A stretch of DNA of 64,000 nucleotides from assembly GCF_001433995.1 (NCBI RefSeq), contig NZ_AZCX01000003.1, positions 1-64,000 of the forward strand. Direction: 5' to 3'. Positions 3,831 to 61,517 of the stretch are shown in pieces. The stretch comes from Secundilactobacillus kimchicus JCM 15530. GTDB lineage: Bacteria > Bacillota > Bacilli > Lactobacillales > Lactobacillaceae. Below the pieces are notes generated by a model. That model made no database searches, had not been told where the DNA came from, and worked only from the letters and a program-made list of their open reading frames with translations. The position numbers and the translations under genes were made by a program. Each line of letters starts with the position of its first letter. The first letter of the stretch is position 1.

Positions 3831-5375
3831 TTAATTTTCTGCATCCGGAAATTCACGTTGATAGTCTGCAATACTCTTGTACTCAGTAGCCAATTCTCGA
3901 CTTAATCGAATATAAATTGGAATAAGTCGCCGATATCGTTCATAAGTTGCATCGTCCGGTTCGTACTTTTTCTCCGACCCAATATACTTTTTAATATCTT
4001 CAAGCTTATCCTCAAGCCCTAGGCTCATCTTGGCTAAAAACATTGCCGCTAAACTCCCGCTTTCATATGAATCAGGAATAACAACCTCATGTTCATACAC
4101 ATCCGCTAACATTTGCCGTCCAAGGGCTGATTGAACAAATCCACCAGCAGCAAGAATTGCTTTAGGCTCCCCCGTGACTTCTTTTAGCGCTAATGTCACT
4201 GAGTATAAGTTGTAAACGATGCCTTCTAAAACAGCACGAATCATGTGAGCACGCGTGTGACTACGATTAAGGCCAAAAAACGAACCACGAGCATTGGCAT
4301 CCCACAATGGTGCACGTTCTCCACCTAGATATGGATGAAAAATCAAGCCGTTTGATCCCGCTGGGACTTTTTCAGCAATTTCCGTCAACATATCGAACGA
4401 ATCCTTTTTCAGTAATTTAGCAGTTTCCTTTTCCGCTCCAAACAAGGCATCATGAGCCCAACTAAACACGATACCACCGTTGTTGATTGGTCCTCCGACG
4501 AGGTACTTTCCATTCATAATTGGATAGCAGTACAGCCGCGCTTTAGGATCTACCTGAGGCTCGTCTACAAATGATCGAACTGCAGCAGATGTTCCAATAT
4601 TAATGGCCAGTACGCCTGTTTCAATGGCCCCCACGCCAATGGTCGATAATGCACCATCGGTCGCTCCCATCACGAAATAGACATCCTCTCCAACGCCCAT
4701 AACCTTTGCGTACTCTGACTTAATTCCCTGAATTTTATATGTCGTCTCGACAAGTTCAGGTAGTTGATCCTGGGTAACTTCCGTTTCTTTGAGAGCTTCT
4801 TCATCCCATTCAGCTGTCTTCATGTTCAATAGCCCTGTAGCGGCTGCCATTGAAATTTCTTCTTTTAGAACGTTAGTGTACTTCCAAATTATATATTCCT
4901 TAATACCAACCCAATATGCCGCTTTATCAAAGACGTCTCGTTTCTCATTTTTCAACCAGAGAAGTTTATAAAAAGGCCCCATCGGATGAATCGGCAACCC
5001 AGTCCGTTTATACATTGCCAGTCCACGACCATTTTCTTTATATTCAGCAGCATATTTTTCCGCCCGATTGTCTGCCCAAGTAAGCGTTCGCGTTAACGGT
5101 TTAAAATCTTTATCAAGTGCAATCAAGCTATGCTGTTGTGCAGACCAAGAAATAGCAAGCACTTTTCCATTGTCCTTGATTCCCTTTGCTACAACCTCTT
5201 GAATCGCCTGCAAAGTTGCATTAAAAATATCCTCCGGGTCTTCTTCAGCCATATCCGGCACGTTCTGATATAGGGTATATCCTTTATTTGCTTTCGCATA
5301 AATTTTACCGTCTAAATCGTATAATAATGCTTTAGTACTTGTAGTCCCAACATCAATTCCAATAATATAATCCAT
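3831..5375 (-). CDS. gntK: Gluconate kinase (FGGY family)
   Basis: This 514-residue FGGY carbohydrate kinase makes 6-phosphogluconate from gluconate, feeding the phosphoketolase route of heterofermenters. The N-terminal phosphate loop is GIDVGTTSTKALLYD, the middle holds MGATDGALSTIG, and the C-terminal FGGY signature region is ILAAGGFVQSALGRQMLADV. It resembles Gram-positive gluconokinases more than xylulokinases. Its promoter region carries two palindromes like those of other uronate genes here and a cre site, so it is probably induced with the uronate set and repressed by glucose. The ATG at 5375 has AAGGA upstream. A different sugar-acid substrate cannot be excluded. Confidence 0.85.
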   Translation of the reverse strand: MDYIIGIDVGTTSTKALLYDLDGKIYAKANKGYTLYQNVPDMAEEDPEDIFNATLQAIQEVVAKGIKDNGKVLAISWSAQQHSLIALDKDFKPLTRTLTWADNRAEKYAAEYKENGRGLAMYKRTGLPIHPMGPFYKLLWLKNEKRDVFDKAAYWVGIKEYIIWKYTNVLKEEISMAAATGLLNMKTAEWDEEALKETEVTQDQLPELVETTYKIQGIKSEYAKVMGVGEDVYFVMGATDGALSTIGVGAIETGVLAINIGTSAAVRSFVDEPQVDPKARLYCYPIMNGKYLVGGPINNGGIVFSWAHDALFGAEKETAKLLKKDSFDMLTEIAEKVPAGSNGLIFHPYLGGERAPLWDANARGSFFGLNRSHTRAHMIRAVLEGIVYNLYSVTLALKEVTGEPKAILAAGGFVQSALGRQMLADVYEHEVVIPDSYESGSLAAMFLAKMSLGLEDKLEDIKKYIGSEKKYEPDDATYERYRRLIPIYIRLSRELATEYKSIADYQREFPDAEN

Positions 5376-5396
5376 CGCTATTCACGTCCTTGCAAA

Positions 5397-5434
5397 ACTA
5401 ATATGTTAGTATCATTTTACGTCTGGTATATCAG
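5397..5434. promoter_or_regulatory. Two putative GntR/UxuR-type operators
   Basis: ACTAATATGTTAGT (5397-5410) and CTGGTATATCAG (5423-5434) are near-perfect palindromes upstream of gntK. They resemble the E. coli UxuR/ExuR consensus around TTGGTATACCAA. The adjacent divergent gene encodes a FadR-type GntR regulator, which is the obvious candidate to bind them. Confidence 0.55.
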
Positions 5435-5437
5435 TTT

Positions 5438-5453
5438 GTCAATAGCGCTTTCA
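5438..5453 (-). promoter_or_regulatory. cre site (CcpA) upstream of gntK
   Basis: The minus strand reads TGAAAGCGCTATTGAC, close to the cre consensus TGWAARCGYTWNCW. It lies directly beside the operator-like palindrome at 5423-5434. Confidence 0.6.
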
Positions 5454-5548
5454 TTAGCGTGGTTATAGCTTTTCCCTCGTTAATCATCCACATTCCCCAG
5501 AGAAAAGTTTTCTTCTTAGTTGATCTAATTCGTTTACTAGTCGCAAAA

Positions 5549-5560
5549 CTAGCATATCTG
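5549..5560. promoter_or_regulatory. Putative autoregulatory GntR operator
   Basis: CTAGCATATCTG resembles the palindrome at 5423-5434 and lies 73 bases before the regulator start codon. Confidence 0.4.
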
Positions 5561-5633
5561 TTTGAATTCAAATCCACTAACCTCTATAATAACTAGGTGC
5601 CCACTATTCAGGAACAAGAAGGAGAAACCCCGT

Positions 5634-6308
5634 ATGGACAACATGCGAAACGATGCTTACAATCAAATCAAGTATAAAATCATCCATTTTGACTACGTAC
5701 CTGGTCAGAAAATTTCCGAAAAAACAATTTCCACTGAGTTAGACCTTGGTCGAACACCAGTGCGCGAAGCGCTGATCCGAATTGAAAGGGAAGGCCTAAT
5801 TGAAGTCATCCCCCAAAGTGGTACTTACATCACTAAAATTGACATGAAAGCGGCTGAGGAAGGCCGCTTTATACGAGAGTGCATCGAACCCAAAATTATG
5901 ACTGAGGCAGCTTTACGAATTGACGACGGAACAATGGAATTACTTCGTCAAAATCTGGACGAACAAGACCAAACTGCTAACAATCAAGAGCCGGATGCTT
6001 TCTTTGACCTTGATCAAACGTTTCACCATTCTTTTTATAATGTGGTCGGTAGAGATTCAGTCTGGCAATGGTTACAAATTAACAACACTCAACTCAACCG
6101 ATTCCGTCGCCTTCGTTTAAAACAGCTCACTCTAGACTGGGACATGTTAGCTACCCAACATAAACAGATATACACTGCTATTCAAAGTAAAAACGTGGAC
6201 GACTTATTATATCTAGTTGGCCAACATCTACACCTAATGCTTGACGAAAAACAACAAGTTCTAGACGCATATTCCGATTACTTCCAAAATATCGGCGAGA
6301 AAAATTAA
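5634..6308 (+). CDS. GntR-family regulator (FadR subfamily), probable uronate/gluconate regulator
   Basis: The 224-residue protein has an N-terminal winged helix (about residues 5-70; LGRTPVREALIRIEREGLI is the recognition part) and an all-helical FCD effector domain (about 78-215), the layout of UxuR and ExuR. The ATG at 5634 follows AGAAGGAG; a longer reading frame from 5562 has no such site. It is divergent from gntK and ends in a shared terminator with the uxuB operon. Palindromes near gntK, uxuB, the MATE gene and the GH31-uxaC operon suggest it controls these together. The effector is probably a hexuronate or a pathway intermediate, by analogy only. Confidence 0.85.
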   Translation: MDNMRNDAYNQIKYKIIHFDYVPGQKISEKTISTELDLGRTPVREALIRIEREGLIEVIPQSGTYITKIDMKAAEEGRFIRECIEPKIMTEAALRIDDGTMELLRQNLDEQDQTANNQEPDAFFDLDQTFHHSFYNVVGRDSVWQWLQINNTQLNRFRRLRLKQLTLDWDMLATQHKQIYTAIQSKNVDDLLYLVGQHLHLMLDEKQQVLDAYSDYFQNIGEKN

Positions 6309-53189: not shown

Positions 53190-54002
53190 CTAATTCTTGC
53201 CACTCAATTTAACAAAGTTAAAATCCCGGCCACCGTAATCCTCAATGTATTGATACAGAATCAACTCCATGACGGCGATCGTCGAAATTCTCGAACTAAT
53301 TTCAGTGTTGTACACCGAAACATCATCCGCAAAAATATACAGGTTCAAATCACTCAAATTTTGAATCGTATTGTTATCGGGTTCGGTCACTGAAATAATT
53401 AGCGGTTTCTCACCATTTTCGACAAATTCATTGATCATCTGCAAGTATTCTGCATCTTGACCGTCGTAGGTTAAGAAAAAAACGACATCATTCTTTTTTA
53501 CCTGGTGGCAAGCAACAGCCCTGAAGTCGTGGTCACGTGGGTACTCCACCTCAAATCCAGCCATTGTGTACAGATAATGAATGTACTCAGTTGCGTACTT
53601 GTCTACCCCCTTTGAAAAAAAGAATAACCGGGGATGTTCAGCTAATTTGGATGTGATTTGGTGAAGCTTTTCCGTCGAAATGACCCGAACGGACTCTGTA
53701 ATGTTTTTTAAATACTCTTCTCGATAATCCGTCTGAGAAACGGTAAACGGTGATGGCTTTTCTTCGTCTTTGTTATTGAGCACCGTGAACTTTATCACCG
53801 TGGTAAATTCGCTGAAACCAGAAAACCCAATTTTTTTGACAAAACGCAAAAAAGTGGCAGTTGATACAAACGTTTCTGCCGCCACTTCGCGAATACTTTG
53901 GGTTTTAATATGATCCATGTTTTTAATGACGTAGTCAAATAAGGACTGCTCACTCTTGGTTAATGAACTTAAGTGGGCGTTGACGATCTCGAAGAAGTTC
54001 AT
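53190..54002 (-). CDS. RpiR-family regulator of the agmatine cluster
   Basis: The 270-residue protein has an N-terminal RpiR helix-turn-helix (about 1-77; VAAETFVSTATFLRFVKKIG is the recognition part) and a SIS sugar-phosphate-binding domain (about 120-250). It overlaps the second agmatine deiminase by four bases and is the last gene of the agu operon. In L. brevis an RpiR-type gene lies at the same place. It may sense a sugar phosphate and adjust agmatine use to carbon supply. A TTTCAT-rich palindrome before ptcA is a candidate site. Confidence 0.83.
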   Translation of the reverse strand: MNFFEIVNAHLSSLTKSEQSLFDYVIKNMDHIKTQSIREVAAETFVSTATFLRFVKKIGFSGFSEFTTVIKFTVLNNKDEEKPSPFTVSQTDYREEYLKNITESVRVISTEKLHQITSKLAEHPRLFFFSKGVDKYATEYIHYLYTMAGFEVEYPRDHDFRAVACHQVKKNDVVFFLTYDGQDAEYLQMINEFVENGEKPLIISVTEPDNNTIQNLSDLNLYIFADDVSVYNTEISSRISTIAVMELILYQYIEDYGGRDFNFVKLSGKN

Positions 54003-55108
54003 CGGCTGTCACCTCCAAGATGATGAGTCGGAACACTTAGCACAAGAGTATGGAGGCCCCCTCCACCTGTTAAAAATTCTCTAGCGGGGAAACCAACGAC
54101 TTCACGACTAGGAAAAAATGAAGCAAATTGTTGTTTTGCGACTTCGTCTTGAGGGTCATCAAACTCTGGTACTACCACTGCCTCATTCAGCAATATGGCA
54201 TTAACGTAGGTTGCCGTTAGTCGCTGGCCTGCATTCCTTGGCAACATCCCATTAATCGGATCAACCCCATTAGCCTCTTCTTGAGACAGCCATTGGGGCT
54301 TAGGCCCGATGACCTTATGAATTTTCAGTTTTCGTCCTCTCGCATCAGTTTCATTTTCCAATATCCGAAGCGCCTCATGGCTAGAACCATACTGGTCGTC
54401 CGTCTCATCATCAGTCCATGTCAGCAAAATTTCTCCCGGTTCAACGAAGCTCACCATATTGTCAGCATCTCCCCCGGTCTCATCCATGAAAAATCCCTGT
54501 TTAAGCCAAATGACCTTCGTAATCCCTAGATAGTCATGAAAGATCTGTTCAGCATCCGTCTTCGTAATTTGACCGTTTCTGCCCTCAGATAAAATAACAT
54601 CCTCGGTGGTAATCAGTGTTCCCTCGCCATCCACTGCAACCGAGCAGCCTTCCAACACGAAATCTGATTGATAGCTATCAAAACGGTCCAAATCCGCAAG
54701 TTTCAGCCCTAGTTCATCGTCCTTATCCCACGGAAAGTACAGACCATCTAGAAGCCCGCCCCAGGCGTTAAACGAAAAGTCGACACACCTGACCTGCTGG
54801 TTGGCATCAACCACATAAAACGGTCCTGTATCCTTAACGAAAGCATCATTACTGCTCATTTCAATCACCCGAATTTCATCAGGTAACGCGCCTCGAGCAT
54901 TCTTGTACTGATTTTCGTTCACTAGAACCGTGATTGCCTGATACTGCGACAATAGTTTCGCAAGCTGCACAAACTTCTTTTGAGCTGGCTTGCCACCATC
55001 CCGCCAATTATCTGGGCGCTGCGGCCATATCATATAACCAGATTCAAAGTCTTCAAACTCTCCCGGCAACCTAAAACCGTCTTGAATTGGTGTTGATTCT
55101 TGGATCAT
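53999..55108 (-). CDS. aguA2: Agmatine deiminase paralogue lacking the catalytic Cys and His
   Basis: This 369-residue protein is a full-length agmatine deiminase homologue ([33 protein letters not shown]). In the active enzyme the C-terminal GGGNIHCIT carries the nucleophilic Cys; here the segment is GGGGLHTLV, with Thr354 in its place. The catalytic His of ETNGHVDN is Asp214 (ETGGDADN), and the Arg of WVRDCG is Lys in FVKDTG. The chain is intact and translated from a good start (AAAGGGG), and the gene overlaps rpiR. It is probably an inactive or changed-function protein. Hydrolysis of agmatine is not expected. Confidence 0.85.
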   Translation of the reverse strand: MIQESTPIQDGFRLPGEFEDFESGYMIWPQRPDNWRDGGKPAQKKFVQLAKLLSQYQAITVLVNENQYKNARGALPDEIRVIEMSSNDAFVKDTGPFYVVDANQQVRCVDFSFNAWGGLLDGLYFPWDKDDELGLKLADLDRFDSYQSDFVLEGCSVAVDGEGTLITTEDVILSEGRNGQITKTDAEQIFHDYLGITKVIWLKQGFFMDETGGDADNMVSFVEPGEILLTWTDDETDDQYGSSHEALRILENETDARGRKLKIHKVIGPKPQWLSQEEANGVDPINGMLPRNAGQRLTATYVNAILLNEAVVVPEFDDPQDEVAKQQFASFFPSREVVGFPAREFLTGGGGLHTLVLSVPTHHLGGDSR

Positions 55109-55138: not shown

Positions 55139-56104
55139 TTAGATTAACGTACTCGCTGGCACCTTAGAGATGACGGTGCCGTCTCCATTTTCCAAGAAGT
55201 TCGCAATATTATCTAGCGATGTGATGACAGCTCGTCCGTTATCTGAATTTTCAACAAAATCGATAGCCGCTTGCACTTTGGGTAGCATGCTCCCTTTGGC
55301 AAATTGATTTTCGTCTACATATTTTTTTAACTCGTTTATTGTAACATCTTCAAGTGCTTTTTGATTTGGCGTATTGAAATTCACAAATACGTGATCGACG
55401 GCTGTCAAAATGATCAGCAAATCTGCACGAACTTGTTCGGCCAATTTCTCAGAAGCAAAATCCTTATCGATAACCGCCTCTCTACCGACCAAACGATTCC
55501 CTTCACGAACAACCGGGACGCCACCGCCACCAACTGAAATGGGGACCACACCGCTCTTAACCAATTTCTCAACAACGAGCGCTTCGTGGACATCAATCGG
55601 CTTGGGTGACGGTACGACTCGCCGATAGCCACGCCCTGCATCTTCAACGAACTTAAAGTCTGGGTGGGTAGCAGATTGAACTTTCGCTTCTTCTTCAGAA
55701 TAAAATGGTCCAATCGGCTTAGAAGGATCGCTGAACGCTTGATCATCAGGACTAACCTCTACCTGCGTCACAACGGTAGCAACAGAGACGTCCAACCCAG
55801 CCGCTGTGATGACTTCGTCTAAGGCATTTTGTAGCCAATACCCAATGCTGCCTTGGGTCATTGCGACGGCAGTGTCGATTGGCATTGCTGGGTTTGTCTC
55901 AGTACTACCAGCAGCTTGCTGTAATAACAAATTACCCACCTGTGGTCCGTTACCATGAGAGACGATTAATTCATCGCCATTTTTGATGAACTTGACCAAC
56001 GATTTGGCGGTTTCTCTTAATGCATTTTGCTGTGCTTCAGCTGACGCATCCTTGGATAAGATGGCGTTGCCCCCAAGAGCCACGACGATTCGACGTTTTG
56101 ACAT
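55139..56104 (-). CDS. arcC: Carbamate kinase
   Basis: The 321-residue kinase makes ATP from carbamoyl phosphate and ADP, the energy-yielding end of the agmatine deiminase pathway. [10 protein letters not shown] at the N-terminus, [14 protein letters not shown] and [11 protein letters not shown] are the family motifs. TGGAGG lies before the ATG at 56104; the longer frame (to 56137) is not needed. It lies between the two deiminase copies. Confidence 0.94.
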
Positions 56105-56131
56105 GTTATAACCTCCATTTTTAAAGAAATA

Positions 56132-56157
56132 GAGCAAAACATTTTAACGTTTTGCTC
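56132..56157 (-). other. Intercistronic hairpin between aguA1 and arcC
   Basis: GAGCAAAAC pairs with GTTTTGCTC across an 8-base loop, with no strong T-run after it. It may tune stability or partially terminate the operon transcript. Confidence 0.5.
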
Positions 56158-56174: not shown

Positions 56175-57269
56175 CTAGTTTTGTGGCACTTGTTGGGTGA
56201 TGCAGTGAATATTACCGCCACCTAACAAGATTTCACGTGCAGGAACACCAACGATTTTACGATCTGGGTAGAGCTTTGATAGTGTTTCTTTAGCTTTTTC
56301 ATCGTTTGGATCTCCAAATGTTGGGAAAACGATCCCGCCATTCGCAGTGTAGTAGTTAACGTAGCTAGCTGCTAACCGTTCGCCTTCGGTCCGTGGTAAT
56401 GTTCCGTCAACCGCGTCCACACCTTCAGATTCTTCTTTAGTGATGGTCACCGGCTTTGGGACATATAGTTTTTCGACTTGAATCTTACGACCCTTAGCAT
56501 CAGTGGCATTCTCCAAAATCTCAAAGTTTTCCTTTGAAATTTCGTATTGAGGATCACTCTGATCGTCAGTCCAAGCTAATGCGACCACGCCCGGCTTAAC
56601 GAAGTTGGCAATATTATCAACGTGACCATTAGTTTCATCGAGATAGATCCCACGCTTCAACCAGATGATTTTTTCCAAGTTCAGGTGTTCTTTCAGAACT
56701 TCTTCAATCTGCTCTTTAGAAAGCTGGGAGTTCCGTCCTTGCGACAAAAGGCATTCCTCAGTCGTAATCAAGGTTCCTTCACCATCAACATGAATTGAAC
56801 CACCTTCAAGAATGAAGTCATCAAGACGGTAACGGTCAACATGTTCCAATTCGGCCATTTTTGAAGCCACACGATCATCTTTGTCCCATGGGAAGTACAA
56901 GCCATCTACTAATCCGCCCCATGCGTTAAAGGTCCAATCTACAGCTCGCAAGTCGCCCTGATCGTTTTTTACGAAGGTCGCCCCACAGTCACGAACCCAT
57001 GAATCATCATTGGAGATTTCAACAACTTCAACATCGTCAGGTAACATGTTTAAGGCATTTTCATATTGAGCGTCACTAACGCCAACTGTGACGTGTTCGA
57101 ATTGAGAGATTGCCTTGGCAACTTCAACAAATGTCTTTTGAGCTGGTTTTCCACCATTACGCCAGTTGTCAGGCCGCTCTGGCCAAAGAATGTAAACACC
57201 TTTGTGAGGTTCAAATTCCCCGGGCATTCTGTAACCGTCTTTTTTAGGGGTGCTATCTAAAGTCTTCAT
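56175..57269 (-). CDS. aguA1: Agmatine deiminase
   Basis: The 364-residue enzyme converts agmatine to N-carbamoylputrescine and ammonia. All expected catalytic residues are visible: His216 in DETNGHVDN, the Asp/Arg pair in WVRDCGATF (92-94), and the nucleophile Cys356 in [10 protein letters not shown]. It lies 20 bases after the antiporter gene. Together with ptcA and arcC it yields one ATP per agmatine and raises cytoplasmic pH. Confidence 0.96.
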
Positions 57270-57289: not shown

Positions 57290-58681
57290 TTAATGAGTGG
57301 CAGTCGAATGGGCTTTCTTCGCCGCATTTTCACTGTGATTAGCATATCGGACGACAATCTCTCCAACCGCTAAGGTGATAATCGTCCCGATCAAAATCGG
57401 CATTTTACTGGAAATTTCAGCGTGAGTACCATTCAATGGAATGATAGTGAAGATAATCGTCACAACAAGGAGAACCTCAGGAACCCAAGTCATCAGTTGA
57501 ATCATAAACTGATTACCTGGCACCTTGAATGGACGCTCACGGTTAGGATCCATTTTACGTAGCTTCAAGAACGCTGGGAACATCATCATATAAGACATCA
57601 GCAGTGCGACAACGTTGAGGGAGAAGAATGCCCAGAAAATATCTTGATTAGGAATGAACGGAGCAGCGATCACTAGAACGGATGCCACGATTCCGTTAAG
57701 GTAACCCGTCCCAACAGGCATGTCGTTCTTATCTTCCTTGCCAAACACTGCTGGTAGAACGTGGTCCTTGGCCGCATAATCAGCAACGTAGTTCACACCC
57801 AGTGCCCAAGAAATCATCTCAGAAGCCAGAATGTACAGGAAGAGAATACCAATAATAACAACGAACCAATTCATGTGCCCAAGCATTAGAATGAAACTGT
57901 CGAGCAAGCCACTTGAAGCTGAGAGCTTGCTTGTTGGTACGGCAACACTCATCCCAAAGGCTGAAAGCAGGTAGAAGAAAGCAATCAGAATACCGCCATA
58001 AATGATGGCTTGTGGAATCTGCTTCTTGGGATTGTCCATATCATCAGCCATTGTGGCAACCACTTCAAATCCAAGGAAGTTGAAGATAATAACTGACAAG
58101 TTACTGAAACTGTTAACGTTCATTTGAGGTAACAGGTTGTGTGGTGCAAAACTATTGGCGACACCTTTAGTGACCGCCACATAGACACCTAAAACAAATA
58201 GCGACAGGATTGTAAAGATTTTCGCAAAAGCAGCTAAGTTCAGTATCCATTTGCTTTCTGACACTGGCTTGTTTCCTAAAACGACAACGAACCAAACAAA
58301 CACTAATTCGATCAAAATTGAAGCGAAGGTACTGAGATGCAATCCAAATATTGTACCGGCAACCTGCGAGAATAAAACGGCTAGGCTAGCCATCCAAATC
58401 GGATAGTTAATCCAGTAAACCCACGCGAGTCGGCCACCCCAACGAGAGCCAAAAGCTTGTTTAACCCAGTCGTACAGACCACCGTCCCCAGTATAAGCCG
58501 TGCCAAGTTCTGATGAAATAAGTCCGTATGGCAAGAAGAACAGGATCAGTAAGAAAATCCACCAGAAGAATTGTGACGTCCCAATTGCCGCTGCTGGTGC
58601 GGCTGACTCAACAACCAAGATCACTACAACCGACATGAGGACCGCATCAAACAATCTAAATTTCTTTTTACCGTTTTCCAT
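57290..58681 (-). CDS. aguD: Agmatine/putrescine antiporter (APC family)
   Basis: The 463-residue transporter has about 12 hydrophobic segments and belongs to the amino acid-polyamine-organocation family: MSVVVILVVESAAPAAAIG at the first helix and GDGGLYDWVKQAFGSRWGG after it. It should exchange external agmatine for putrescine. GGAG lies 10 bases before the ATG at 58681; the ATG at 58690 is too near that site. It is in the canonical place between ptcA and aguA1. Confidence 0.92.
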   Translation of the reverse strand: MENGKKKFRLFDAVLMSVVVILVVESAAPAAAIGTSQFFWWIFLLILFFLPYGLISSELGTAYTGDGGLYDWVKQAFGSRWGGRLAWVYWINYPIWMASLAVLFSQVAGTIFGLHLSTFASILIELVFVWFVVVLGNKPVSESKWILNLAAFAKIFTILSLFVLGVYVAVTKGVANSFAPHNLLPQMNVNSFSNLSVIIFNFLGFEVVATMADDMDNPKKQIPQAIIYGGILIAFFYLLSAFGMSVAVPTSKLSASSGLLDSFILMLGHMNWFVVIIGILFLYILASEMISWALGVNYVADYAAKDHVLPAVFGKEDKNDMPVGTGYLNGIVASVLVIAAPFIPNQDIFWAFFSLNVVALLMSYMMMFPAFLKLRKMDPNRERPFKVPGNQFMIQLMTWVPEVLLVVTIIFTIIPLNGTHAEISSKMPILIGTIITLAVGEIVVRYANHSENAAKKAHSTATH

Positions 58682-58728
58682 GATGTTCATTCTCCAATCT
58701 TAAGTGCGAATCGCACCGTTTCCGGAGC

Positions 58729-59763
58729 TTATTTTTCGTTCCTTGAATCAACGGCGTTGCGAAGCATCAATTCGAATTCGGCATCATACTTTTCTGCAAC
58801 ATTCTTTGAAGCGTATTTCAATTCTGGATTCAACAGGTAAACGAAGATTGCCCGCATGGCCGTCTTACGGTTTTCGGCTTCGTCCCAAACAATCGAGTAG
58901 TCTGAATCAAGCACTTCATCAGTAACTTCCTCACCACGGGTTGCTGGCAAACAATGCATGAAGCGAACGTGATCTGAGGCTTTAGCAATCAGGTCTGCGT
59001 TAACTTGGTACTTAGGGAAGAAGATCTTCATCCGTTCGTCCTTAGGCATTTCATCATCGTACAAACCATACCAAACATCAGTGTAAACAAAGTCGGCGTC
59101 TTTCAAGGCTTCGTCGGCATCTTCAGTAATTGTGACACTGCCACCATACTTCTTGGCGTTTTCCTTACCGATCTTAACGACGTCATCCTTCATCTGAAAG
59201 CCTTTAGGGCCAAATTGAACGAAGTCCATGCCCATCTTAGTCGTCATAAACATCGTCGAAACACAAACTTGGGTTGCGTCACCAACGAAAACAATCTTGC
59301 AATCGCTAAGCTTCTTACCCTCTGGCAAGTGTTCCGTCATGGTGATAATGTCACCGAGTTCTTGGGTTGGGTGATTGTAATCACTCATGAAGTTAACGAC
59401 TGGAACCTTGGCATACTTAGCAACATCAGCAACTGACTTGTGGCGATCAACCCGGGCGCCAATGATATCCAAAATCCGGCCAAGAACTTGTGAAGTATCC
59501 TCAATGGTTTCGTGGCCACCCAGTTGAATTTGACCAGGTGCCAAGTATTGAGCGTGACCACCGAGTTCGGTCATCGCTGCTTCAGCGGAAGTCCGGGTCC
59601 GAGTTGAGCTTTGTTCGAAGATCATACCAAGCGTCTTGTTTTTCAACAGCGGAGGATAATAACCGTTCTTGATTGATTCTTTAATCTTGATTCCGAGATC
59701 AATCATGTATTGAATTTCTTCCTGAGTGTAAGTATTAGTGTCAACAAAATCACGTTTAGCCAT
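58729..59763 (-). CDS. ptcA: Putrescine carbamoyltransferase
   Basis: This 344-residue transcarbamylase splits carbamoylputrescine with phosphate into putrescine and carbamoyl phosphate. [10 protein letters not shown] (52-61) is the carbamoyl phosphate site and [10 protein letters not shown] the second motif. The C-terminus has the extra helix seen in putrescine rather than ornithine enzymes. It leads the agu cluster; AAAGGGG precedes the ATG. Ornithine transcarbamylase is the sequence relative, but the cluster fixes the substrate. Confidence 0.95.
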
Positions 59764-59845: not shown

Positions 59846-59880
59846 TAGCTGTTGATATCGCAGTTCGTGAGGTGTGACGT

Positions 59881-59904
59881 GTTTCATTTTATGAAACATG
59901 TTTC
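59881..59904. promoter_or_regulatory. Tandem GTTTCAT palindromes upstream of ptcA
   Basis: GTTTCAT-TTT-ATGAAAC (59881-59897) overlaps GAAACATGTTTC (59893-59904), both perfect. GAAA/TTTC palindromes are common RpiR targets, so the operon's own RpiR gene is a candidate binder. The gap 59764-60101 holds no gene. Confidence 0.5.
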
Positions 59905-60101: not shown

Positions 60102-61292
60102 TTAATACATCCGAACGCCCTTTTTATAAACAGCTTTGTCCTTTTGCTGAACCGCCTTAATATCCTCCAACGGATTACTATCCAACACAAGAAAATCGGC
60201 AAATTTACCAGCTTCCAATGTTCCATATTCATCTTGAATACCCATTAGAGTAGCAGCATTTTGACTTGACGTTTGCATTGCTTCAAATGGTGTTGCCCCC
60301 TGTTGCACCATAAGTTCGAGTTCGACCGGTGTCATAGTAAAATCGTTGAAAGGCGTTCCAGCATCAGTACCTAGCGTTACTTTAACGCCACGTTTCCACG
60401 CTTGCATAATGTTGGCATATAGATCATCAAGAGCATCCGCCGCTTTCTTAATCTCCCAGTCAGGCATGCTGCCTCGCCCGTATTCCGGAATAGCCCAATC
60501 GGCTACAAATGTTGGTGTGAGATAGGTTCCTTGCTCAATCATCAGATCCGCTTCTTCATCAGTAACATAAAAGCCGTGTTCAATTGAGTCGACGCCCGCT
60601 TTAATGGCGTTCATAATGCCTGGATTACCCTCTGCATGAGCTGCAATAATTCGGCCTTTATGATGTGCTTCTATTACCGCCGTTTGCATTTCCTCAACGC
60701 TTAACTGTGGATCTGTCATGAAATCTCCTGGTGTCATAACGCCCCCAGTTGCCATTACTTTGACCGATTGAGTACCTTTCTTTAATCCCGTGCGGACCGC
60801 CTTACGCATTTCATCAGGTGAATCAACCAGATGAGCAAAATGGCCTAAATCACCATGGCCCCCTGTCATAGAATATGGACGCCCAGACGTCATAATTTCG
60901 GGAGTATGATCAATTTTCCCTTCTTTTCTTAGTTCATTTAACCGGATATCAATATCAAAAGCTGAACCACACTCACGTATGTATGTCACACCAGAAGCTA
61001 GTAAATCGTGAAGATTGTCTACAGCCCGAACCGTCAATTCGATCTCATCTGTGCCAAGACCACCATCTCCTGATTGAGGGTCCATCGTAATATGAGTATG
61101 GCAGTTAATCAAGCCTGGCATAACGTATTGACCCTTCAAATCCACAATTTGTTGACTATCAGTAGGTGCCTGATTACTTCCAACCTCAGTCAATTTTCCA
61201 GTTTCATTCTCAACAACGAACCAAGCATCTGTCGTAACAGTGTTATTCTTACCATCAAACAACTTGGCGTTAGTGTAAACCGTAGTACTCAT
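60102..61292 (-). CDS. Amidohydrolase, imidazolonepropionase/prolidase-like
   Basis: The 396-residue metalloenzyme of the amidohydrolase superfamily has the HxH metal pair (His65, His67 in LINCHTHITMD), a likely carbamylated Lys in SVKVMATGGV, further ligands in AAHAEGNPG and SIEHGFY, and the final Asp in LGTDAGTPF. Relatives in the 'imidazolonepropionase-like' group hydrolyse cyclic amides or Xaa-Pro-type dipeptides. GGAG lies 8 bases before the ATG at 61292. It is divergent from a membrane transporter gene, which may supply its substrate; that substrate is unknown. Confidence 0.85.
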   Translation of the reverse strand: MSTTVYTNAKLFDGKNNTVTTDAWFVVENETGKLTEVGSNQAPTDSQQIVDLKGQYVMPGLINCHTHITMDPQSGDGGLGTDEIELTVRAVDNLHDLLASGVTYIRECGSAFDIDIRLNELRKEGKIDHTPEIMTSGRPYSMTGGHGDLGHFAHLVDSPDEMRKAVRTGLKKGTQSVKVMATGGVMTPGDFMTDPQLSVEEMQTAVIEAHHKGRIIAAHAEGNPGIMNAIKAGVDSIEHGFYVTDEEADLMIEQGTYLTPTFVADWAIPEYGRGSMPDWEIKKAADALDDLYANIMQAWKRGVKVTLGTDAGTPFNDFTMTPVELELMVQQGATPFEAMQTSSQNAATLMGIQDEYGTLEAGKFADFLVLDSNPLEDIKAVQQKDKAVYKKGVRMY

Positions 61293-61517
61293 AAAATTCA
61301 CTCCATTTTTCTAATTTTAAATTAATCTTTATAACTTAAATTCCACTCTAATCCGCTTCAAAAATTTAGTCAAGTTCCAAAATTCTTTTATCACTGCGTG
61401 TAATCACGAATGAATAAGTTTCTTGCAAGTTAACTCAATATTAAATTTGACTGTGATTAAGATTAGAGTTACGGTGTTGTTTGTATTGATTTTACATATT
61501 TTTTGAGGTGATTACAT

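What the first reader, a model, noticed from the sequence alone, without database searches (positions are those of the whole stretch)
53999..55108. Second agmatine deiminase is a probable pseudoenzyme kept in the operon
The nucleophilic Cys is Thr354, the catalytic His is Asp214 and the Arg of WVRD is Lys, yet the rest of the fold is intact, translated and overlapped with rpiR. That suggests selection for a non-catalytic job (binding agmatine, regulating, or pairing with AguA1) or a new activity.
Basis: seen in the sequence. Interest (0 to 1): 0.72.

Follow-up and report, generated by a model that had tools for sequence, protein, structure and literature searches.

The report
Dead agmatine deiminase paired with regulator
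The second agmatine deiminase gene in this lactobacillus operon has lost its catalytic residues, and so have its relatives in dozens of lactobacilli and enterococci, yet it is kept intact and tightly coupled to the operon's regulator gene, which suggests a worn-out enzyme reused as part of a gene switch.

Summary
AguA2 (53999-55108, -) lacks the AgDI nucleophile (C357 to T354), the catalytic His (H218 to D214) and the Arg of WVRD. It keeps D96, E157 and D220, the residues that hold the guanidinium.

I found 77 distinct relatives in Lactobacillaceae, enterococci, Listeria and a few others. All carry Cys or Ser at G159 and all keep D96/E157/D220. All but ten (mostly Listeria) have lost H218, and many have lost C357 too. 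The inferred order is G159C, then H218D, then C357S/T. Selection is purifying (dN/dS 0.015-0.125). Listeria AguA2 is reported inactive by others.

The new point is the partner. In 76 of 77 loci rpiR starts within about 20 nt of the aguA2 stop. AguA2 evolves in step with RpiR (partial r 0.61-0.71), not with AguA1 (0-0.24). A palindromic operator precedes the operon where RpiR is present.

Best explanation: a non-catalytic, probably agmatine-binding co-regulator of RpiR. Non-catalytic and selected: about 0.9; full mechanism: about 0.45. Main caveat: five Listeria genomes have RpiR without AguA2. Activity, binding and complex formation were not tested.

The parts
53999..55108 (-). aguA2: non-catalytic agmatine deiminase paralogue (pseudo-AgDI), 369 aa; C155 (=G159), K92 (=R95), D214 (=H218), T354 (=C357); E153, D93 and D216 kept
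53190..54002 (-). rpiR-type regulator (RpiR-like regulators of agmatine genes in Lactobacillaceae are called AguR in PMC3616900): HTH_6 plus SIS domain; starts inside the aguA2 stop (ATGA)
55139..56137 (-). arcC/aguC, carbamate kinase (profile match starts at residue 15; the true start is probably the in-frame ATG near 56104)
56175..57269 (-). aguA1: agmatine deiminase with the full catalytic set (G157, H216, C356, D94, E155, D218)
57290..58690 (-). aguD: APC-family antiporter, presumed agmatine/putrescine exchanger
58729..59763 (-). ptcA/aguB: putrescine carbamoyltransferase (TIGR04384, 576 bits, cut-off 500)
59880..59898 (-). predicted RpiR operator TGTTTCATAAAATGAAACA, about 117-135 nt upstream of ptcA; the only perfect copy in the genome; family form TGTTWC-N7-GWAACA

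Best explanation
AguA2 is an ancient duplicate of agmatine deiminase that no longer deiminates agmatine and has become a partner of the operon's RpiR-type regulator. Shown by sequence: the nucleophile and catalytic His are gone, the fold and the guanidinium-holding carboxylates are kept, selection is purifying, the gene is almost always immediately upstream of rpiR, and its rate of change follows RpiR and not AguA1. Inferred: AguA2 binds agmatine (or N-carbamoylputrescine/putrescine) without turning it over, is made together with RpiR, contacts it, and modulates its hold on the TGTTWC-N7-GWAACA operator upstream of ptcA, so that the operon responds to the substrate pool without the sensor consuming it. 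Because RpiR also occurs without AguA2 in one Listeria group, AguA2 is more likely a modulator that tunes RpiR than the sole sensor.
For: Catalytic loss across the clade: of 77 distinct AguA2, states at 159/218/357 are CDC 23, CDT 22, CDS 10, CHC 10, SDS 5, CAT 4, CNC 2, CD- 1; D96, E157 and D220 are 77/77. The tree places all H218-lost proteins on one side of a 99* branch and separates the C/S159 proteins from the catalytic ones (support 92). dN/dS 0.015-0.125. Gene coupling: rpiR starts within about 20 nt of the aguA2 stop in 76/77. Where the cluster is rearranged (G226/L041), aguA2-rpiR moved together and stand divergent to ptcA with the single operator between them; inserts sit between arcC and aguA2 in L082/L098 and in two plasmids, and none was seen between aguA2 and rpiR. 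Partial correlation of evolutionary distances: AguA2-RpiR 0.61 (all), 0.68 and 0.71 (subsets), p about 0.001; AguA2-AguA1 0.00-0.24; AguA2-arcC, its other neighbour, -0.14 to 0.36. Shared lineage accelerations: G106 branch lengths AguA2 0.51, RpiR 0.68, AguA1 0.025; G226 0.96, 1.32, 0.19. Operator within 2 mismatches in 47/63 RpiR loci against about 0.5 in shuffles and 1/27 RpiR-less loci. Agmatine induces aguA1 transcription in Lb. brevis (PMC3499163). A Cys-to-Ser AgDI mutant (C. jejuni C315S, PDB 6B2W, title) was crystallised with substrate bound, so loss of the nucleophile can leave a binder.
Against: Five Listeria genomes have the operon and RpiR but no AguA2 beside it, and their RpiRs keep all 77 highly conserved positions, so RpiR does not strictly need AguA2. 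RpiR's own SIS domain looks changed away from phosphosugar binding in clusters with and without AguA2, so RpiR may sense the ligand itself. Co-evolution and adjacency can also arise from shared inheritance of neighbouring, fast-evolving genes; gaps of only a few nt leave little room for insertions. No binding, complex or regulatory experiment was possible; the predictor used takes single proteins only.
Confidence: 0.45

Rival explanations
1. Prozyme-type partner: AguA2 joins AguA1 in hetero-oligomers and activates, stabilises or tunes it, as the catalytically dead paralogues of AdoMetDC and deoxyhypusine synthase do in the trypanosome polyamine pathway.
For: Same operon; dead paralogues that activate their living partner are documented in polyamine metabolism (PMC5201418, PMC3663545; abstracts); the shared fold makes mixed oligomers possible.
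Against: AguA2 distances do not follow AguA1 once the other genes are accounted for (r 0.00-0.24). AguA1 of Lb. brevis is reported active (PMC3499163), and many operons have AguA1 alone. In G226 aguA2 has left the aguA1 transcript but not rpiR.
Confidence: 0.18
2. RpiR alone senses the inducer. AguA2 only buffers or competes for agmatine, or affects rpiR output through translational coupling, without touching RpiR.
For: RpiR occurs without AguA2 in one Listeria group. The SIS motif is altered in agmatine-linked RpiRs with and without AguA2. The aguA2-rpiR ATGA overlap or very short gap is typical of translational coupling.
Against: Does not by itself explain why the AguA2 protein sequence changes in step with RpiR, or why three acidic residues are invariant.
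Confidence: 0.17
3. AguA2 has a different catalytic activity, for example with C159 or D218 as new catalytic groups, or on another guanidine or ureido compound.
For: The pocket is largely kept (64 of 119 AguA1-invariant columns unchanged), and C159 is new and nearly constant.
Against: C159 becomes Ser in the five 'SDS' proteins, D218 becomes Ala in four and Asn in two, and residue 357 is C, S or T. No new invariant nucleophile or general base appears in the clade comparison.
Confidence: 0.1
4. AguA2 is on a slow way out: redundant, relaxed, with no function.
For: It evolves about 2.8 times faster than AguA1 by distance; broken copies exist in G009, G387 and G261; Listeria aguA2 deletion had no acid-survival phenotype (my recollection of Cheng 2013; the full text was not held).
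Against: dN/dS far below 1 in every pair that could be measured, long retention from Listeria to Lactobacillaceae implied by the tree, intact copies on mobilizable plasmids in two genera, and 77/77 retention of D96/E157/D220.
Confidence: 0.05

Closest known systems
Listeria monocytogenes AguA2 (lmo0040)
   Same: Second AgDI-like gene between carbamate kinase and an RpiR gene (lmo0039-0041, PMC2996996). Reported not to be a functional agmatine deiminase (Cheng 2013 as cited in PMC7698193). The Listeria relatives found here share G159C and the same gene order.
   Different: The Listeria AguA2 relatives read here keep H218 and C357; the window protein has lost both. No link to RpiR function was found in the papers held.
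Levilactobacillus brevis agmatine cluster, second putative AgDI (Lucas 2007)
   Same: Same gene order and same clade (L095/L076, state CDT); only aguA1 is named as catalytically active (PMC3499163).
   Different: The paper is known here through later citations; no statement about lost catalytic residues or a regulatory role was found in held papers.
Agmatine deiminase, TIGR03380 / PF04371 (E. faecalis 2JER)
   Same: Fold (TM 0.93), profile score above the TIGR03380 cut-off, substrate carboxylates D96/E157/D220.
   Different: No Cys nucleophile and no catalytic His.
Catalytically dead paralogues in polyamine pathways (trypanosome AdoMetDC prozyme, DHS dead paralogue)
   Same: An inactive duplicate of a polyamine-pathway enzyme that has been kept.
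   Different: Those act on the sister enzyme; here the evolutionary partner appears to be the transcription regulator.

Membership tests
Agmatine deiminase enzyme (EC 3.5.3.12) | PAD_porph / AgDI fold and profile match | tested here: met
   TIGR03380 526.9 bits (cut-off 381.8); PF04371 320 bits; TM 0.93 to 2JER
Agmatine deiminase enzyme (EC 3.5.3.12) | Cys nucleophile (C357) | tested here: not met
   T354
Agmatine deiminase enzyme (EC 3.5.3.12) | Catalytic His (H218) | tested here: not met
   D214
Agmatine deiminase enzyme (EC 3.5.3.12) | Guanidinium-binding Asp/Glu (D96, E157, D220) | tested here: met
   all kept, 77/77 in the clade
Agmatine deiminase enzyme (EC 3.5.3.12) | Subfamily model NF010070 (PRK13551) above cut-off | tested here: not met
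   466.9 bits, cut-off 483; AguA1 scores 623.6
Agmatine deiminase enzyme (EC 3.5.3.12) | Hydrolysis of agmatine to N-carbamoylputrescine | not testable with these tools
   needs an enzyme assay
AguA2 clade (second AgDI of Listeria, Enterococcus, Lactobacillaceae) | Groups apart from catalytic AguA, with C or S at position 159 | tested here: met
   branch support 92 for C/S159 against G159, 99* for the H218-lost group; clade status assumes the root lies among catalytic enzymes
AguA2 clade (second AgDI of Listeria, Enterococcus, Lactobacillaceae) | Immediately upstream of rpiR | tested here: met
   4-nt overlap in the window; 76/77 in the clade
Prozyme-type activator of the sister enzyme | Physical complex with, and activation of, AguA1 | not testable with these tools
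   indirect evidence against: no AguA1-AguA2 rate coupling
Ligand-sensing co-regulator | Binds ligand and contacts or modulates the transcription factor | not testable with these tools
   indirect support only: coupling, co-evolution, retained carboxylates

The most novel reading that the evidence does not exclude
A metabolic enzyme duplicate in the agmatine operons of Bacilli was turned, through a visible series of active-site losses (G159C, then H218D, then C357S/T), into a dedicated substrate-sensing subunit of an RpiR regulator: a two-part switch in which the sensor is a dead copy of the pathway's own enzyme.
Probability: 0.4. Interest if true: 0.68.

Novelty: new variant of a known kind. 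Interest (0 to 1): 0.55.

Why it matters
Two genes in these operons are labelled 'agmatine deiminase' by the standard equivalog model (TIGR03380), yet one of them lacks the catalytic machinery in dozens of species; predictions of putrescine production in food bacteria from gene presence should use AguA1 only. If the coupling to RpiR is functional, it is a clean case of an enzyme becoming a sensor, with intermediate stages still alive in Listeria, enterococci and lactobacilli, and it offers a route to how these operons sense agmatine, for which no mechanism was found in the held papers.

Tried and rejected
Neutral decay was rejected by dN/dS and clade-wide retention. Partner of AguA1 was disfavoured by lack of rate coupling. 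A relocated nucleophile at C159 was considered and disfavoured because the residue becomes Ser in one group and no new invariant catalytic residue appears. I looked for RpiR positions that differ where AguA2 is absent, hoping to find a contact surface: none of 77 conserved positions differ, which is evidence against an AguA2-dependent core of RpiR. A second operator inside the operon was sought and not found: only one match in the window. Papers on the Listeria AguA2 experiments (PMC3772207, PMC4888459) and on the E. faecalis enzyme (PMC1797358) are not held, so their details are not used beyond citations in other papers; I recall that the Listeria work concerned Cys-157 (= G159C) but could not check it. 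Co-folding of AguA2 with RpiR was not possible with the predictor offered.

Full report
WHAT WAS CLAIMED AND WHAT IS THERE. The ORF at 53999-55108 (-) is a complete 369-aa agmatine-deiminase-like protein. In E. faecalis AgDI numbering (PDB 2JER, aligned) its catalytic Cys357 is Thr354, His218 is Asp214, Arg95 is Lys92, Trp93 is Phe90 and Gly159 is Cys155. The guanidinium-holding Asp96, Glu157 and Asp220 are present. AguA1 at 56175-57269 has the whole catalytic set. The roles of these residues are established knowledge of the family, not tested here. The AF2 model has pLDDT 86 and pTM 0.87 and matches 2JER at TM 0.93. The stop codon overlaps the rpiR start by four bases (ATGA).

IT IS A CLADE, NOT A QUIRK. 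Searches of 398 Lactobacillaceae genomes, the GTDB contig collection, plasmids and 395 genomes of the order gave 77 distinct AguA2 proteins. States at positions 159/218/357: CDC 23, CDT 22, CDS 10, CHC 10, SDS 5, CAT 4, CNC 2, one truncated; D96, E157 and D220 are invariant, 77/77. Catalytic AguA proteins in the same genomes read GHC. The maximum-likelihood tree, built without those three columns, puts all H218-lost proteins on one side of a 99* branch, with Listeria CHC proteins between them and the catalytic enzymes; the branch uniting the C/S159 proteins has support 92. Rooted among catalytic enzymes this reads as G159C first, H218 lost next, C357 lost last and more than once. The rooting is an assumption, and several branches are long.

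SELECTION. Against plasmid copies from Secundilactobacillus paracollinoides and Loigolactobacillus backii (96% DNA identity over the cluster), dN/dS of aguA2 is 0.081 and 0.075. Seven other species pairs give 0.015-0.125; aguA1 in six of those pairs gives 0-0.044 (Nei-Gojobori, with dS near or beyond saturation in two of the seven). aguA2 is therefore less constrained than aguA1 but far from neutral. Broken copies are few: a frameshift in G009, and truncations in G387 and the incomplete G261.

THE PARTNER. In 76 of 77 loci rpiR starts within about 20 nt of the aguA2 stop; the exception is the truncated copy, where rpiR still follows. In G226 the catabolic genes point one way and aguA2-rpiR the other, with the single operator between them. 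Distances of AguA2 follow RpiR after accounting for the other genes: partial r 0.61 over 42 loci, 0.68 and 0.71 in subsets, p about 0.001; AguA2-AguA1 is 0.00-0.24 and AguA2-arcC -0.14 to 0.36. AguA2 and RpiR speed up in the same lineages. Linked inheritance can produce part of this, so it is support and not proof.

THE SWITCH. Upstream of ptcA lies TGTTTCATAAAATGAAACA (59880-59898 on the - strand), the only perfect match in this genome. The form TGTTWC-N7-GWAACA is within two mismatches in 47 of 63 RpiR loci, against about 0.5 expected in shuffles and 1 of 27 loci without RpiR. An RpiR-like AguR regulon for agmatine use in Lactobacillaceae was inferred earlier (PMC3616900), and others noted RpiR near agu genes with no function known (PMC3796520). 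Agmatine induces aguA1 in Lb. brevis (PMC3499163). The SIS domain of these RpiRs reads AKGxSK and xYxGxD/E where phosphosugar-binding relatives have GTGSS and SLSGST, so the ligand is probably not a phosphosugar; this holds with or without AguA2.

HOW IT MOST LIKELY WORKS. AguA2 has stopped deiminating, is still shaped to hold a guanidinium compound, and works with RpiR to set the operon's response to agmatine. Shown: residue loss, retention, selection, coupling, co-evolution, operator. Inferred: ligand binding, contact with RpiR, effect on the operator. Evidence against a strict requirement: five Listeria genomes have RpiR and the operon without AguA2, and their RpiRs keep every conserved position. 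My estimates: non-catalytic and under selection about 0.9; the full co-regulator mechanism 0.45; prozyme for AguA1 0.18; indirect effect on RpiR 0.17; other activity 0.1; decay 0.05.

KNOWN AND NEW. Two AgDI genes in the Lb. brevis cluster, with aguA1 the active one, were known (PMC3499163), as was the inactivity of Listeria AguA2 (PMC7698193). I found no held paper that describes the clade-wide loss of catalytic residues, its order, or the coupling with RpiR; absence from an open-licence library is weak evidence of novelty.

Noticed in passing
L164 (NZ_CP014914) 5075-5862 and L162 (NZ_CP014916) 4058-4945: Brewery plasmids of Secundilactobacillus paracollinoides carry the agmatine cluster; in one an IS5 transposase is annotated between arcC and aguA2, in the other the same gap is about 0.9 kb long. 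aguA2 and rpiR remain intact. A Loigolactobacillus backii plasmid has the uninterrupted cluster.
   Followed up: partly
window 53190-54002: The SIS domain of this RpiR lacks the usual phosphosugar-binding Ser/Thr motifs, in clusters with and without AguA2; its ligand may be agmatine or another amine.
   Followed up: partly
window 59880-59898; L041, L069, L117, L086 and others: Palindromic operator whose half-site changes between lineages (TGTTTC in many Lactobacillaceae, TGTTAC in Enterococcus/Listeria, TGTTCC in some Lentilactobacillus) while staying palindromic.
   Followed up: yes
L054/L213 (G180): An intact aguA1 sits beside a C-terminal fragment of rpiR; arcC, aguA2 and the front of rpiR are gone, as if removed together.
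   Followed up: no
L055/L152 (Lentilactobacillus kefiri), L056-L058: AguA1-type genes without ptcA, aguD or arcC nearby; the pathway context there is unclear.
   Followed up: no
L212 (G675:C13:76868-77959): The aguA1 match lies in an 847-aa open frame, apparently fused with aguD; could be real or an assembly error.
   Followed up: no
window 60102-61301 (-): An amidohydrolase-like ORF lies directly upstream of the agmatine cluster on the same strand.
   Followed up: no
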